The notes under the pieces were generated by a model. It saw only the letters and a program-made list of their open reading frames with translations. It did no database searches and had not been told where the DNA came from. Below, in pieces: positions 58,728 through 63,676 of a stretch of DNA of 64,000 nt. The first letter of the stretch is position 1, and each line of letters opens with the position of its first letter. Both the position numbers and the translations under genes were made by a program. The DNA is from Halorubrum xinjiangense (lineage in GTDB: Archaea > Halobacteriota > Halobacteria > Halobacteriales > Haloferacaceae). The stretch lies in the NCBI RefSeq assembly GCF_900102375.1, contig NZ_FNBO01000004.1, positions 1 through 64,000 of the forward strand, read 5' to 3'.

Positions 58728-58895
58728 TCGCGTAGCTACCCAGCCGTCTCTGTCGGTTTCTATTTTTGTGCCGTCCTGCGAGAACGAACAACATCCGATA
58801 CGAGGTATTCCAAGTCGATCGATTCCGATTACTCGTCGTATCTCAAGAGACCTACAGGAGATCTTGACGGCTGGTTCGATAGCAAAAAACGTCCA

Positions 58896-59184
58896 CTCAA
58901 TGTCCCGGGATAGTTGTTCGAGGACTGCGTTCCGGGTGTAGTCCTGCCAGCAGTTTCACGTGTGCGTGTGGGACGTTGAGGACCTCGCGGCGGTGCTCGC
59001 GAACGGCGGCCCTCGCGACAGTCGTCTTCCCGGCGCCGGAGGGACCGAAGAGAAAGCAGTTCTCGGCGCGCTGGCCGTCTTCGATCGGCGCGAGGGCGTC
59101 GGTCACCTCATTCATGTGGCGGTTCCGGCCGACAATCGGATCGGGGAGGTGGTCGTCTTCGAAAACCGTTCCGTCGCTTATCAC
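58896..59184 (-). pseudogene. Fragment of an Orc1/Cdc6 replication initiator
   Basis: The N-terminal part of an Orc1/Cdc6 AAA+ protein is readable: VFEDDHLPDPIVGRNRHMNE, then FLFGPSGAGKTTVARAAVRE (Walker A) and NVPHAHV. One extra base near 58953-58957 then shifts the frame; in the new frame the sequence continues NCWQDYTRNAVLEQLSRDIE, matching the family, before similarity ends at about 58896. About three quarters of the gene is missing. The shifted frame and truncation mark it as dead. It suggests an integrated plasmid or virus. Confidence 0.75.
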
Positions 59185-59596
59185 GTCTCACTCGGAGACA
59201 GTACCGGGATATAACCGAAACCCTCGGTTTTCTGGATGGTCGAAAATTTAATCTCACAGAGGTCCGTCTGAAACCAAAATTGTAATTAGCATTAGAATCA
59301 CCATTGAAGCAGGCGGGACACGCCGGCACAACGCCGTCGCGGCCAGTTTCAGACGGACCTCTCTAGGGTTCGGGTTGACCGTTCGATCCGAACCAGTTGG
59401 GTATCCTCAAGTCTGTGAACCACTGAAGAGTCTGACGCTTGGGGATGGCGAGAAGGAGATGCTTTTCGCCCAACTGGCGAATAGACCCACTATATTACCA
59501 ATCTTAAGTTTCACTTGTGGTCACCTAGCCAATTTGGATTACGCGTTCGACAAGAATCGAATGTCTACGTTTTCGTCGATGCGATACTCTTTCAGA
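59185..59596. other. AT-rich intergenic region with inverted repeats
   Basis: 412 bases with no gene. It contains 17-bp inverted repeats at 59258-59274 and 59346-59362. Confidence 0.5.
59258..59362. repeat. 105-bp sequence bounded by perfect 17-bp inverted repeats
   Basis: AGAGGTCCGTCTGAAAC at 59258-59274 and its exact complement at 59346-59362 enclose about 71 bases. This is the form of a miniature inverted-repeat element or a large operator or terminator. No clear target duplication was seen. Confidence 0.65.
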
Positions 59597-61696
59597 TCAA
59601 TCAGGAGTTAACATTCGGATTTTGCCAGATTCGGTCCCAACAATCACGGACTCATCATAACTATTGAGCGTCACGACTTCATCATCGATCTCCACTCTGT
59701 GTGTCACTGCTCCATCTGATTTTTGACAGCCAGTCAGTCCACCATTGGAGTCGTAAAATAGTGTATCTCGCAGCCATACTGGTTTTGTAAACCTCGCTTC
59801 ATAATCTCCGTGCGTCCATATTTGCTCTCCAGAGAAATCACCATACCAGATGCCGCCTGTAGTATAAATAAAGACGCCCGAATTAATCGTCGGACCACTA
59901 ACTGAAGGACTGACCGCCACATCTTCTGAGTTGATCCCACTTGCGACGGTCTCTCTCCAGACTACTTCTTCACGTTCAATTTCGACCGCGTGGAGCTCAA
60001 TAGATTCGCTCCCAGAATAAGCTCCCCCGCGTTCACCCCCACCAGTAATGTAGTACGCTAATGATTCTCCCATTGCGAGACCGCCTGAATACGAACCAGT
60101 CTCAGGGATAGTTACCGGTGATTTCTCGCCAGATTGCTCTGGTTCTTCTATGTATGCTAGATCGTATCTACTATAGAATAGCGAGCCATTAAGAAAGACT
60201 GGATCAGAAGATGGTTCATCTGTTACTTCCCAAATTGTGTCCCCAGTACTTGTTGAGAATGCTTGAAGAAAGTCCTCTTGACCATTGGAGGCCAGCACGA
60301 TGACATCGTCGTTGTTAGCAGCACTAGGATTCGATTCATTGCTAGTCGCATTGTGGCTGACACTCCACCGCGTTTCACCTGAATCCTTTCTGAGAGCGGT
60401 TATGAGACTAGTAGTGACCAGAATTAGAGTATCACTAGTTGTACCGAGGTGAACCATTTGCCCATCAAAGTCCTGTGTCCAATTTTCATCTCCTTCTGGA
60501 GAAAGGCTCCGTACAAGTGACGAATCGGTGCCCGCATAGATGGCAGAGTCGTCCTTTTCGAGAGTGGTAATCGTTTCATAAGTGTCGATAGCATCTGTCC
60601 ATTCTTCTGTGAATCCTTTTACCGGGGTGTCATTCGAAGTTGGAGAATCACTCTGTGTTGTGTCAGGTCCGTCTCCACCCGGCACATCGTTTCCCGATAC
60701 AGAACTATGCTGGTTGCTGTCACCGCTGAAAAAGTATCCCGCAATTCCGCCTACCCCAACGAGTCCGAGGGTTTTCAGGATAGGGCGGCGGGATTCGTCT
60801 TCACCTCCTTCTGGTGTCGCACTATCAGTACTCGGGGTCGCACCTGTCGCTCCAGCCTGATCACTGGTTTCTAGTGTAATTTCCTGGTAGTCGTCGTCCT
60901 CACCGACGTCGAAAGAGCTGGTGGTTTGATTAAATCCATCTTTCGTAATACCCAGTTCTACCGATGTCCCAGACGGGATCGAGAATTCTACTTCTCCGTG
61001 TTTGTCGGTTCGAGAGCTCATTTTGGTACCACTCGTCGGGAACGCAACCTCGACTAAACTGTCGCGTAGCGGCGAGTGCTCGCTATTGACAGTGCGAATG
61101 GTCAGAGCGGTGGAGTTTGCGAGCCCCATATCTTCGAGAAGCTGGTCGAATTCATCTCGCATCCGTAAAGCATCACCTGGGCTGACCGGAATCGTTACAG
61201 CAGAGTTCGCAAATTCGTTTTCGCCGACCGGGCTCTTATCCGCGATTAGTGAGATTTCAGGCTGGAACTCCTGTTTTTCTCCGTCGGTCACAGGTCTCCG
61301 AACTGTCGCCATTCGAGGATCCGCATCGGGGTGCGGGAAGATCGGCGCATCTCTCCACTCACCATCGAGGTTCTCTACATCTGGGTGGATGAGCTTATGA
61401 CAGTCAGCGCAGAGATTAACCAGATTGCTGAGGCTGTGTTGTCCATTTTTGCTAACTGGCCGGTAGTGATGACAATTAAAATAATCTTCATCAGATAGTG
61501 AAATATGGCAACGGGCACATCGACCATTCTGGTGTTCAAGGACAGCTTCGCGGCGATCAGTCCAGTCCGGGGGGTAATCACCGTTTCCGAAGTACGAGTT
61601 CTCTTCTGATACGTTAGAAGGATGGTCGTACTTTCGGTCAATTCCGTATTTCTCGTATAGCTCTCGGATGGTAGAGTTGGTTTTGTCTGAGGACAT
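59597..61696 (-). CDS. HNH nuclease - internal Tat-like anchor - beta-propeller protein
   Basis: 699 aa. Residues about 45-105 are an HNH domain: GRCARC (Cys60, Cys63), NCHHY (His76-His77), NLVNLCADCHKLIH (Asn91, Cys96, Cys99, His104), complete for zinc and catalysis. Residues about 195-290 form an Ig-like, carboxypeptidase-regulatory type domain. SRRPILK at 302-308 followed by a helix (LGLVGVGGIAGYFF) resembles a Tat signal-anchor placed inside the chain. The rest, about 350-699, is a PQQ-type beta-propeller (repeated GDTIWEVTD-like blades). Predicted layout: nuclease inside, propeller outside. No full-length known family is recognised. It is AT-rich and divergent from a protease lipoprotein. 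Confidence 0.72.
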   Translation of the reverse strand: MSSDKTNSTIRELYEKYGIDRKYDHPSNVSEENSYFGNGDYPPDWTDRREAVLEHQNGRCARCHISLSDEDYFNCHHYRPVSKNGQHSLSNLVNLCADCHKLIHPDVENLDGEWRDAPIFPHPDADPRMATVRRPVTDGEKQEFQPEISLIADKSPVGENEFANSAVTIPVSPGDALRMRDEFDQLLEDMGLANSTALTIRTVNSEHSPLRDSLVEVAFPTSGTKMSSRTDKHGEVEFSIPSGTSVELGITKDGFNQTTSSFDVGEDDDYQEITLETSDQAGATGATPSTDSATPEGGEDESRRPILKTLGLVGVGGIAGYFFSGDSNQHSSVSGNDVPGGDGPDTTQSDSPTSNDTPVKGFTEEWTDAIDTYETITTLEKDDSAIYAGTDSSLVRSLSPEGDENWTQDFDGQMVHLGTTSDTLILVTTSLITALRKDSGETRWSVSHNATSNESNPSAANNDDVIVLASNGQEDFLQAFSTSTGDTIWEVTDEPSSDPVFLNGSLFYSRYDLAYIEEPEQSGEKSPVTIPETGSYSGGLAMGESLAYYITGGGERGGAYSGSESIELHAVEIEREEVVWRETVASGINSEDVAVSPSVSGPTINSGVFIYTTGGIWYGDFSGEQIWTHGDYEARFTKPVWLRDTLFYDSNGGLTGCQKSDGAVTHRVEIDDEVVTLNSYDESVIVGTESGKIRMLTPD

Positions 61697-61973
61697 TACA
61701 GAATGAACACTAATCCTATCTTATTGTATGTGTTTCTAGTCTGATATAGATGTATGTATCTCAATCATATTTGGGTATGTCAATAGAACTACTCCATCTT
61801 GAGTCGTTTGAGAACGAGCCAAGTGTGAGCAGTTCTACTGAGACCAATAGCGTCTACGTGTCCGACAACTGGTGAAGGGCTGGACAAGACTCGCGCATCA
61901 AGCCGTTGGTCATCTCGGTCACCAAAATCTCAGGAATAAATATCTATATACATGTTGGTTACAGAACAAATAC
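61697..61973. promoter_or_regulatory. Divergent AT-rich promoter region of the island pair
   Basis: 277 bases shared by the HNH-propeller gene and the protease gene, very AT-rich near 61697-61780 and 61930-61955. AATATCTATATACAT at about 61939-61953 is a TATA candidate for the rightward gene. A shared control region suggests co-regulation. Confidence 0.45.
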
Positions 61974-62990
61974 ATGGATTCAATCTCTCGCCGGCGTCTC
62001 CTAGAACTTGCGTCGGTTGGGATCGTTACAGGGACAGCTGGATGTTCTAATATCCTAGGTAGTTCGGGGTCAACAACGGCACCGTCATCCAATACTTCAG
62101 GAGAATCCAGAGCAGAACTTCAGAATCGTATTGCGGAGTTACAGAGCAGGGTTGAGTCGCTTCAGGGAGAGGTCTCATCAAAGGACGAGGAGATCGTGTC
62201 GCTAAATCAGGATATGGAGGAACTTCAAGAGAGGTCCAACGAGAAGAATCAAACTATCGAGTCTCTAAGATCCGATCTTAACGATGCTGAGGTCCGAATT
62301 GACGAACTGGAAGCACAGTCTGTAGAGTATCAGTACAGTGCTGAAGTGAGACAATCTGCGACTGACGCTGGCCGGAAGCTTCGAGAAGCTGTCGTCGCAT
62401 TCGACTTTGAGTACGACGGCAATTTTAGTTCAGGTGGAACAGGGTGGTTCATCGACCAGAACCACATCATTACGAATAGGCACGTTGTTCAGGACTTGGT
62501 AGACGGCAATGTTACTTCGAAGACTGGATATCTCCTTGACGGCACAGAATTTGATTTTTCGGTTAGTCACACAGCGGAAGATGATGATATAGCACTGGTT
62601 GAGACCGACGTGACAGCCCCCTATATCCCACCACTCGGGACTGCGTCTTCACTGACTGCTGGTCAACCACTTGTCCAAGTCGGGCATCCAGCAATGATTG
62701 GGAAATGGGTCATCAGTCTCGGTGAATTCATACAAGATCAGGAATTCGGAAATGGACTACATACAGAGATACCGTCTACATCTGGAAATAGTGGGTCACC
62801 ACTCATTACACTTGACGGGACCGTTGTGGGGCTCACATACGCGAGTACCAAGCGTGACTTCGACCGTGGACCACCGACACCGAGTGAAGAGGGAGCAGTT
62901 GAAGAGTACCCGTATCAGGAGGTACAGTACGCCATACACGAACGCATAGACACCGTACTGGATTACTACGAGCAATGGACTGGGAAATAG
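61974..62990 (+). CDS. Trypsin-like serine protease lipoprotein with coiled coil
   Basis: 338 aa from the ATG at 61974; the frame is open upstream but lacks a signal there. Tat signal SRRRLLELASVGIVTG with a lipobox at TAGC (Cys24). Residues about 45-118 are a coiled coil (RIAELQSRVESLQGEVSSKD). The protease domain has the triad His170 (TNRHVV), Asp205 (DDIALVE) and Ser273 (GNSGSPL), as in HtrA/S1 enzymes. No PDZ domain follows. It should be anchored outside the cell, facing the propeller of the divergent gene product. Composition is AT-rich like its neighbour. Confidence 0.84.
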   Translation: MDSISRRRLLELASVGIVTGTAGCSNILGSSGSTTAPSSNTSGESRAELQNRIAELQSRVESLQGEVSSKDEEIVSLNQDMEELQERSNEKNQTIESLRSDLNDAEVRIDELEAQSVEYQYSAEVRQSATDAGRKLREAVVAFDFEYDGNFSSGGTGWFIDQNHIITNRHVVQDLVDGNVTSKTGYLLDGTEFDFSVSHTAEDDDIALVETDVTAPYIPPLGTASSLTAGQPLVQVGHPAMIGKWVISLGEFIQDQEFGNGLHTEIPSTSGNSGSPLITLDGTVVGLTYASTKRDFDRGPPTPSEEGAVEEYPYQEVQYAIHERIDTVLDYYEQWTGK

Positions 62991-63200
62991 CGACATGAGA
63001 ACCAGGATCGGTCGATAGTGCTACTAGGAGTGTGTTTCTAATGCTGGTGTACTTCGGGTAGAGAGTCGGGCAATCCACTCAAATTGTTGTCCGAGAATCG
63101 GTGGAGAGTCGGACACGATCGGCCTCGAACCCCACCCGATCACGCCGGGAACCCCACCCAACCCGTACCTTTTTGTCCGGTTGACGCGCCAGCCGGACGC

Positions 63201-63360
63201 ATGAATCTACAGCCCCACGACGAAGAGGACGGGAAGAAGCTCTGACTCCCCGAGACCGAGGTCGAGAAGCTCGAAGTGATCGACGACGACACCGAGCAGA
63301 CGATCGCCTTCTCGCTCGGCGCGCGCTCTGGGCTTCGTTCGGGTGGATCTTCGACGTTGA
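63201..63360 (+). pseudogene. Decayed tyrosine recombinase (integrase) fragment
   Basis: Translation from the ATG at 63201 reads MNLQPHDEEDGKKL, a stop (TGA), then LPETEVEKLEVIDDDTEQ and IAFSLGARSGLRSG. This follows the N-terminal part of haloarchaeal phage-type integrases, in which a Trp stands at the stop position (TGG to TGA). After GLRSG the reading shifts frame and is soon lost. The gene is dead. It points toward the tRNA-Pro 250 bases away. Confidence 0.6.
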
Positions 63361-63363
63361 CGC

Positions 63364-63514
63364 CGACAGCGCTGCCACAGCTGATTCGACGGAAGCAGTC
63401 GCACCCTAAGCAGCGGTGTGCGACGTCGTTCTCATCACCGAAGACAGCCCGGAACCTATCAGAAACGTGACCGTCACAGTACCGGCACTGCGCGGTTTCG
63501 TCAGAGCCGCCCAT
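63364..63514 (-). pseudogene. Truncated zinc-ribbon (DUF7563-like) gene
   Basis: From the ATG at 63514 the sequence reads TAQCRYCDGHVSDRFRAVFG and then HRCLGCDCFRRIS. This matches the small zinc ribbon at 31504 in layout, with two Cys pairs. After about 50 residues the frame runs on through the antisense of the integrase fragment to a stop at 63140, giving a Ser-rich nonsense tail. The native C-terminus is probably lost. Confidence 0.5.
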
Positions 63515-63605
63515 TTTGGCGGTTCATAGCGCACCCCCTGAATGCGGTTTTCGGGTGTTAGAAGGTGCTAAGGATACTGATAATGAGAACCTATAAAGAA
63601 TATGA

Positions 63606-63676
63606 TGGGACCGCTGAGAGTCGAACTCAGGTCATACGGACCCCATCCGCATAGGATACCACTACCCCACGGTCCC
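63606..63676 (-). tRNA. tRNA-Pro (GGG)
   Basis: On the minus strand the cloverleaf folds with acceptor GGGACCG/CGGTCCC, the anticodon loop ATGGGGT (anticodon GGG) and the T arm GAGTTCGACTC. The discriminator is A and no CCA is encoded. Its 3' end faces the integrase fragment and the island. Confidence 0.95.

What the first reader, a model, noticed from the sequence alone, without database searches (positions are those of the whole stretch)
59597..62990. Divergent HNH-propeller and protease lipoprotein: candidate transmembrane sensor-effector system
The HNH protein has a full nuclease domain at its N-terminus, an internal SRRPILK Tat-like motif plus helix, and a large propeller predicted outside the cell. 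The divergent gene encodes a trypsin-like protease with an intact triad and lipid anchor, also outside. A shared 277-base promoter region, AT-rich composition and location in a decayed integrative element suggest an accessory module. One model: the propeller senses an external cue or virus, the protease cuts or monitors it, and the signal frees the inner nuclease. I know of no described system of this architecture.
Basis: inference. Interest (0 to 1): 0.78.

Follow-up and report, generated by a model that had tools for sequence, protein, structure and literature searches.

The report
Membrane-tethered HNH nuclease with external propeller
A salt-loving archaeon carries, on the stump of a mobile element, a protein that appears to hold a DNA-cutting domain on the inner face of the cell membrane and a propeller-shaped binding domain outside; the architecture is rare and under selection, but the protease gene beside it is not shown to be its partner and what the protein does is untested.

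Summary
The 699-aa protein (59597-61696, -) has an N-terminal HNH domain with its metal and catalytic residues conserved among relatives, a middle domain, an internal twin-arginine plus hydrophobic segment, and a PQQ/BamB-like propeller. The divergent 338-aa gene (start better placed at 61974) is a Tat lipoprotein with a trypsin-like domain and intact triad. Both sit in a 4.9-kb island (58731-63605) inserted exactly at the 3' end of tRNA-Pro and absent from two sister species. Halorubrum sodomense has the same pair in the same interval on a larger element, next to a type IIG restriction enzyme and a GmrSD enzyme. Every part is under purifying selection; the internal Tat/TM segment has 0 amino-acid changes against 8 silent ones. 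However, the full architecture occurs in only 2 of 391 haloarchaeal genomes, and homologues of each gene elsewhere occur without the other. HNH relatives are mostly membrane-anchored too, by C-terminal helices. Best reading: a membrane-tethered HNH nuclease, probably accessory defence cargo acting on DNA at the membrane; the protease link rests on one ancestral arrangement. Nuclease activity, topology and defence are untested.

The parts
58731..63605 (.). low-GC island (4,875 bp), remnant of an integrative element at tRNA-Pro
   Evidence: sister species G110 (L154) and G027 (L155) lack it; homology ends at 58730 and resumes at 63606
58902..59240 (-). remnant of the element's orc1/cdc6 gene (5' part)
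   Evidence: 89% DNA identity to the start of an intact 343-aa Cdc6 in H. sodomense
59597..61696 (-). HNH - middle domain - internal RR/TM - PQQ-like propeller protein, 699 aa
   Evidence: dN/dS 0.26 overall against H. sodomense
61385..61519 (-). HNH nuclease domain, residues 60-104 (C60,C63,H76,H77,N91,C96,C99,H100,H104)
   Evidence: PF01844; residues invariant or nearly so in 7-9 aligned relatives (H100 is lost only in L068); structure-model match to McrA, PtuB, IscB, T4 EndoVII HNH folds, Z 5-6
60842..61291 (-). middle region, residues 136-285: helices then a beta-rich part (sub-threshold CarboxypepD_reg match at 203-269)
   Evidence: partly shared with HNH-TM relatives; dN/dS 0.15
60722..60796 (-). 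internal twin-arginine motif and hydrophobic segment, residues 301-325
   Evidence: 0 nonsynonymous against 8 synonymous differences
59600..60610 (-). PQQ/BamB-like beta-propeller, residues 363-699
   Evidence: PF13360 E=1.2e-12; best outside homologues are N-terminal-Tat PQQ proteins; dN/dS 0.32
61697..61973 (.). divergent intergenic region, 277 bp, conserved AT-rich blocks at both ends
   Evidence: 77% identity to H. sodomense
61974..62990 (+). Tat lipoprotein with coiled coil and trypsin-like domain, 338 aa
61974..62045 (+). Tat signal and lipobox, residues 1-24 (TAGC)
   Evidence: sequence; 16 residues between R7 and C24, inside the 12-21 range reported for haloarchaeal Tat lipoboxes (PMC2945643)
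62436..62834 (+). trypsin-like domain, residues 155-287, triad H170/D205/S273
   Evidence: PF13365 E=4e-18; HhoA alignment
63606..63676 (-). tRNA-Pro (GGG), integration target

Best explanation
The 699-aa protein is a membrane-tethered HNH nuclease. An internal twin-arginine signal carries the C-terminal propeller out of the cell and stays as a single membrane anchor, so the HNH domain remains on the cytoplasmic face. Carried as cargo on an element integrated at tRNA-Pro, it most likely cuts or nicks DNA at the membrane (incoming virus or plasmid DNA, or host DNA upon infection), with the propeller binding something at the cell surface. The neighbouring lipoprotein protease may act on the propeller or may be an independent envelope protease. 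Shown by computation: domains, residue conservation, purifying selection, element location. Inferred: topology, nuclease activity, defence role, propeller ligand, any role of the protease.
For: HNH domain with conserved residues and an HNH fold in the model. RR-TM with zero amino-acid change against 8 silent changes. Of the propeller homologues listed most are N-terminal Tat substrates, so the internal signal looks like a former N-terminal one placed behind an HNH region. Two other haloarchaeal proteins put a J-domain-like N-terminus before the same kind of internal RR-TM and an exported repeat domain. An internal Tat signal exporting a C-terminal domain is established for Streptomyces Rieske protein (PMC13186574). 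Most haloarchaeal relatives of this HNH domain end in predicted TM helices. In H. sodomense the pair lies about 2.4 kb from a type IIG restriction-methylase and near a GmrSD enzyme on an integrase-bearing element.
Against: The hydrophobic segment is weak for a membrane helix (1.45). Only two orthologous copies exist, so there is one independent instance. Defence role rests on neighbourhood in one species. Some membrane-anchored HNH relatives sit beside phosphate-uptake genes, so tethering alone does not imply defence. No trigger or ligand is identified.
Confidence: 0.42

Rival explanations
1. Two-component transmembrane alarm: the external lipoprotein protease cleaves or senses the propeller, and that event switches on the inner nuclease.
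For: Genes adjacent and divergent in both carriers, kept together in a 4.9-kb remnant that lost nearly everything else; both predicted outside; both under purifying selection.
Against: One independent instance only. Strong protease homologues occur in 26 genomes without the long HNH family, in housekeeping or unrelated settings, and the HNH family occurs in 5 genomes without it. Each gene has its own conserved promoter-end sequence.
Confidence: 0.15
2. Entry exclusion or element competition: the nuclease serves the element itself by cutting rival or sibling element DNA as it is transferred into the cell.
For: Located on an element with integrase and Cdc6; the RFC to tRNA-Pro interval is a variable integration site in the genus.
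Against: No conjugation genes were looked for systematically; the copy in the window survives on a remnant that can no longer move.
Confidence: 0.15
3. The HNH fold is structural or regulatory rather than a nuclease, as in DotN of Legionella, and the protein is an envelope scaffold or sensor.
For: DotN is among the structure matches (Z 5.2); related tail-anchored HNH proteins lie beside pstB/phoU in Natrialbaceae.
Against: Catalytic H/N/H and both CxxC metal pairs are conserved in essentially all relatives.
Confidence: 0.15
4. No membrane crossing: the internal segment is a relic of fusion and HNH and propeller are both cytosolic.
For: Modest hydrophobicity; topology not measured.
Against: RR motif and hydrophobic core unchanged in amino acids between species while the propeller has changed freely; propeller homologues are Tat-exported.
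Confidence: 0.1

Closest known systems
ZorE, HNH nickase effector of type II Zorya
   Same: HNH domain of a defence nuclease that works at a membrane site (PADLOC E=2.5e-7 over residues 36-101; ZorE is recruited by ZorAB and nicks DNA, PMC11890865)
   Different: ZorE is soluble and needs ZorA/ZorB; no MotA/ExbB homologue exists in the window genome or H. sodomense; full-length ZorE model score is 21.2 against a cut-off of 600
McrA-type and PtuB/retron HNH nucleases
   Same: HNH fold, McrA and PtuB at Z about 6
   Different: those proteins are not membrane-tethered and carry other partner domains (own knowledge); PtuB model score 11.5 against a cut-off of 150
Haloarchaeal HNH proteins with C-terminal TM helices (Natrarchaeobius, Haloparvum, Salinibaculum, Halorubrum sp. 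CSM-61 and others)
   Same: same N-terminal 130-200 residues at 36-42% identity, same conserved residues, predicted membrane anchoring
   Different: TM hairpin or tail helices instead of internal RR-TM plus propeller; no protease neighbour
Haloarchaeal Tat-exported PQQ propeller proteins
   Same: propeller and Tat-type signal
   Different: signal is N-terminal; no nuclease domain
Streptomyces Rieske protein with internal Tat signal
   Same: internal RR-TM exports a C-terminal domain (PMC13186574)
   Different: polytopic respiratory protein, unrelated domains
Haloarchaeal lipoprotein serine proteases, HtrA-like
   Same: Tat lipobox, trypsin-like domain; closest full-length homologues also have a coiled-coil-like stretch
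   Different: 38-44% identity; found alone

Membership tests
HNH endonuclease superfamily (PF01844) | profile match and conserved metal/catalytic residues | tested here: met
   37.7 bits against cut-off 21.4; C60, C63, H76, H77, N91, C96, C99, H104 invariant in nine aligned sequences
HNH endonuclease superfamily (PF01844) | metal-dependent DNA cleavage | not testable with these tools
   needs biochemistry
Zorya type II | ZorA (MotA/ExbB family) present | tested here: not met
   PF01618 absent from G000 and G011, and from 8 other carriers/related genomes; control genomes ring
Zorya type II | full-length ZorE equivalog | tested here: not met
   NF041791 21.2 bits against 600
IscB RNA-guided nuclease | IscB equivalog (RuvC plus HNH) | tested here: not met
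   NF040563 35.3 bits against 175, only HNH region matched
Septu/retron PtuB | PtuB equivalog | tested here: not met
   NF041761 11.5 bits against 150
PQQ-like propeller (PF13360) | profile match | tested here: met
   48.5 bits against 27.6
BamB outer-membrane assembly factor | BamB equivalog | tested here: not met
   TIGR03300 51.5 bits against 285.2
Trypsin-like peptidase (PF13365) | profile match and H/D/S triad | tested here: met
   67 bits against 27.6; H170/D205/S273
Do/HtrA family protease | Do-family model score (protease plus PDZ) | tested here: not met
   TIGR02037 42 bits against 416.2, match ends at residue 287
Haloarchaeal Tat lipoprotein | RR motif 12-21 residues before lipobox cysteine | tested here: met
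   16 residues between R7 and C24; range from PMC2945643
Internal-Tat-signal membrane protein | RR motif directly before an internal hydrophobic segment, N-in | tested here: met
   sequence and charge features only, constrained
Internal-Tat-signal membrane protein | Tat-dependent export of the C-terminal domain | not testable with these tools
   needs topology mapping in a tat-sensitive background

The most novel reading that the evidence does not exclude
A single-protein transmembrane sensor-nuclease: an external propeller recognises a virus or mating partner and, aided by a surface lipoprotein protease that cleaves the propeller or linker, unleashes the HNH nuclease on the other side of the membrane; one of a wider haloarchaeal design in which an internal Tat signal couples a cytoplasmic effector domain to an exported sensor domain.
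Probability: 0.12. Interest if true: 0.85.

Novelty: new variant of a known kind. Interest (0 to 1): 0.48.

Why it matters
If the topology is right, an internal Tat signal couples a cytoplasmic nuclease to an external binding domain in one chain, which would let a cell act on DNA at the point of entry. It would also give a function to a larger group of haloarchaeal HNH proteins, most of which appear membrane-anchored and for which no description turned up in the papers searched. The genus Halorubrum is culturable, and the Haloferax model system makes the claim directly testable.

Tried and rejected
Zorya membership: rejected. IscB, PtuB, BamB, Do/HtrA equivalogs: rejected on score. Viral or phage origin: no relative in phages; viral contigs gave only weak HNH-region matches for the HNH query (E 7e-7 or weaker, at most 72 residues) and nothing for the protease. 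Plasmids: only HNH-domain matches for the nuclease; the protease has solitary homologues. Full-length AlphaFold2 model was too poor to use (mean pLDDT 36.6), so the propeller fold rests on profile matches; the N-terminal model was usable only for residues about 10-103, and no PDB match reached Foldseek E <= 0.001. Bacterial promoter scan found nothing above chance and does not cover archaeal promoters. A recurrent partner gene for the HNH-TM relatives was sought by all-against-all comparison of neighbourhoods; none was shared widely. Literature searches for membrane-anchored HNH nucleases, HNH plus propeller in haloarchaea, and trypsin plus HNH defence returned nothing describing this architecture; only open-licence papers are covered. 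Several apparent internal RR-TM hits are mis-started N-terminal signals or polytopic proteins and were discarded by inspection.

Full report
What is there. The window lies in a Halorubrum genome (3.26 Mb, 25 contigs; its genus mates include H. sodomense RD 26). Two divergent ORFs occupy 59597-61696 (-) and 61974-62990 (+). The first encodes 699 aa: HNH domain at residues 60-104 (PF01844, 2.3e-9), a PQQ-type propeller (PF13360, 1.2e-12), a sub-threshold CarboxypepD_reg match at 203-269, and between them SRRPILK followed by the protein's most hydrophobic window. The second encodes a Tat lipoprotein: signal with lipobox, coiled-coil-like stretch, and a trypsin-like domain (PF13365, 4e-18) aligned to HhoA with H, D and S in place. 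The coding start chosen by the ORF list (GTG 61872) is upstream of the signal; ATG 61974 fits the Tat signal.

The island. GC falls to about 0.49 from about 0.70. In two sister species (G110, G027) the RFC-pilin side and the tRNA-Pro side lie only about 180 bp apart; the window's homology to them stops at 58730 and resumes exactly at 63606, the 3' end of tRNA-Pro. The interval between RFC and tRNA-Pro is of very different length in other Halorubrum, so it is an integration hotspot. A Cdc6 5' remnant remains at 58902-59240. In H. sodomense RD 26 the same pair lies on the contig that also holds RFC (C6:3160-6541 against RFC at C6:80680), flanked by an intact Cdc6, a type IIG restriction-methylase, a GmrSD enzyme and a D12 methylase. 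An integrase lies next to a second partial copy of the tRNA-Pro end (C6:21521-21663), and tRNA-Pro itself is about 19 kb from the end of another contig, C9. That C9 and C6 join, giving an element of about 41 kb or more, is my inference. The window copy is thus a remnant in which the pair is the only intact cargo.

Selection. Window against H. sodomense: dN/dS 0.21 for residues 1-135, 0.15 for 136-285, 0.32 for the propeller, 0.42 for the protease domain (bootstrap 0.21-0.79), with nothing above 1. The 25 residues of the RR-TM have 8 silent and 0 replacement differences. The protein is therefore maintained as one chain, with the internal signal part of what is maintained. The intergenic region is 77% identical, best at its two ends, consistent with two separate promoters.

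Relatives of the HNH part. In 391 genomes of the class, the full protein occurs only in the window genome and H. sodomense (87% identity); five others have the N-terminal part at E<1e-25. In all 52 Halorubrum genomes only the same two have it, plus one distant HNH-TM protein. A scan of GTDB species genomes added Salinibaculum, a Haloarcula MAG, a Salinarchaeum MAG and others. These relatives are 158-433 aa, share the YPPDW..RR..V motif and HNH residues, and end in predicted TM helices rather than a propeller. Among the wider set of haloarchaeal HNH proteins hit, most also carry C-terminal TM helices. So membrane attachment, not the propeller, is the common property.

Relatives of the propeller. 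Its best homologues outside the pair are mostly ordinary Tat-exported PQQ proteins with the RR signal at the N-terminus. Two proteins share the unusual internal position: a 639-aa protein in G385 with a J-domain-like N-terminus (by eye; no Pfam match) and a PQQ-like propeller, and a 645-aa Natrarchaeobius protein with a DnaJ match just under the Pfam cut-off (26.3 against 27.8 bits) and a beta-helix. The latter is next to an Hsp70 and an HNH-TM gene. Among 681 ORFs examined these were the only convincing internal RR-TM cases besides the pair (judged by inspection). A C-terminal domain exported through an internal Tat signal is known for Streptomyces Rieske protein (PMC13186574).

Is it a two-gene system? 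Strong protease homologues (E<=1e-20) are in 28 of 391 genomes, the long HNH family in 7; both together only in the two Halorubrum. No protease homologue lies in any HNH-TM neighbourhood held, and no HNH-propeller homologue in any of the 17 protease neighbourhoods checked. Protease homologues sit among housekeeping genes or on plasmids. The link therefore rests on one ancestral arrangement that was kept when the rest of the element was lost. That is suggestive, not proof.

Mechanism. I commit to a membrane-tethered HNH nuclease with an external propeller, most likely accessory defence cargo (about 0.4). Tethering would concentrate the nuclease where foreign DNA arrives; the propeller would bind a surface or viral component. 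Steps shown by computation: domains, conservation, selection, mobile-element origin, restriction-enzyme neighbours in one species. Steps inferred: N-in/C-out topology, DNA cleavage, defence, ligand. Alternatives are a protease-triggered alarm, element-versus-element exclusion, a non-catalytic HNH fold, or a cytosolic protein.

Comparison with known systems. The HNH domain scores weakly to ZorE, IscB, DpdF, PtuB and retron HNH proteins, all through the HNH region only and far below equivalog cut-offs. ZorA is absent from the genomes. The structure model of residues 10-103 resembles McrA, PtuB, IscB, T4 EndoVII and also DotN (Z 5-6, which shows fold, not function). I found no paper describing this architecture in the open-licence library. 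I file it as a new variant of a known kind: known domains, in an unreported and rare combination.

Limits. Genome searches score only a few candidates per genome and cover half the species held. The full-length structure model failed. TM calls are Kyte-Doolittle windows, not a trained predictor. The gene calls used for neighbourhoods are from my own simple picker and include spurious ORFs.

Noticed in passing
L008-L030 and L061-L068 (HNH ORFs listed): Most haloarchaeal relatives of this HNH domain end in one to three predicted TM helices; a broad membrane-anchored HNH group that I could not find described.
   Followed up: partly
L009, L022, L023, L027, L030: A roughly 245-aa HNH protein with a C-terminal tail helix (308 aa in L023) lies beside phosphate-uptake genes that look like pstB or phoU, judged from sequence, in several haloarchaeal genomes (family f4).
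   Followed up: no
L088:9281-11200 and L062:9125-11062: J-domain-like N-termini followed by an internal twin-arginine TM segment and an exported propeller or beta-helix; the second lies beside an Hsp70 and an HNH-TM gene.
   Followed up: partly
L065:3309-5682: An HNH-TM gene directly downstream of a volactin gene (PF25216).
   Followed up: no
L148:8966-14622 (H. sodomense C6): Type IIG restriction-methylase followed by a GmrSD enzyme on the same element as the pair.
   Followed up: partly
L060:1501-1674 (G343): A 58-aa stretch in a 69-aa open frame, 59% identical to the protease, the nearest homologue outside the pair; probably a decayed copy, without an HNH-propeller gene.
   Followed up: no
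window 58731-63605 and L154-L158: The RFC to tRNA-Pro interval is an integration hotspot in Halorubrum, from about 0.18 kb to tens of kb.
   Followed up: partly
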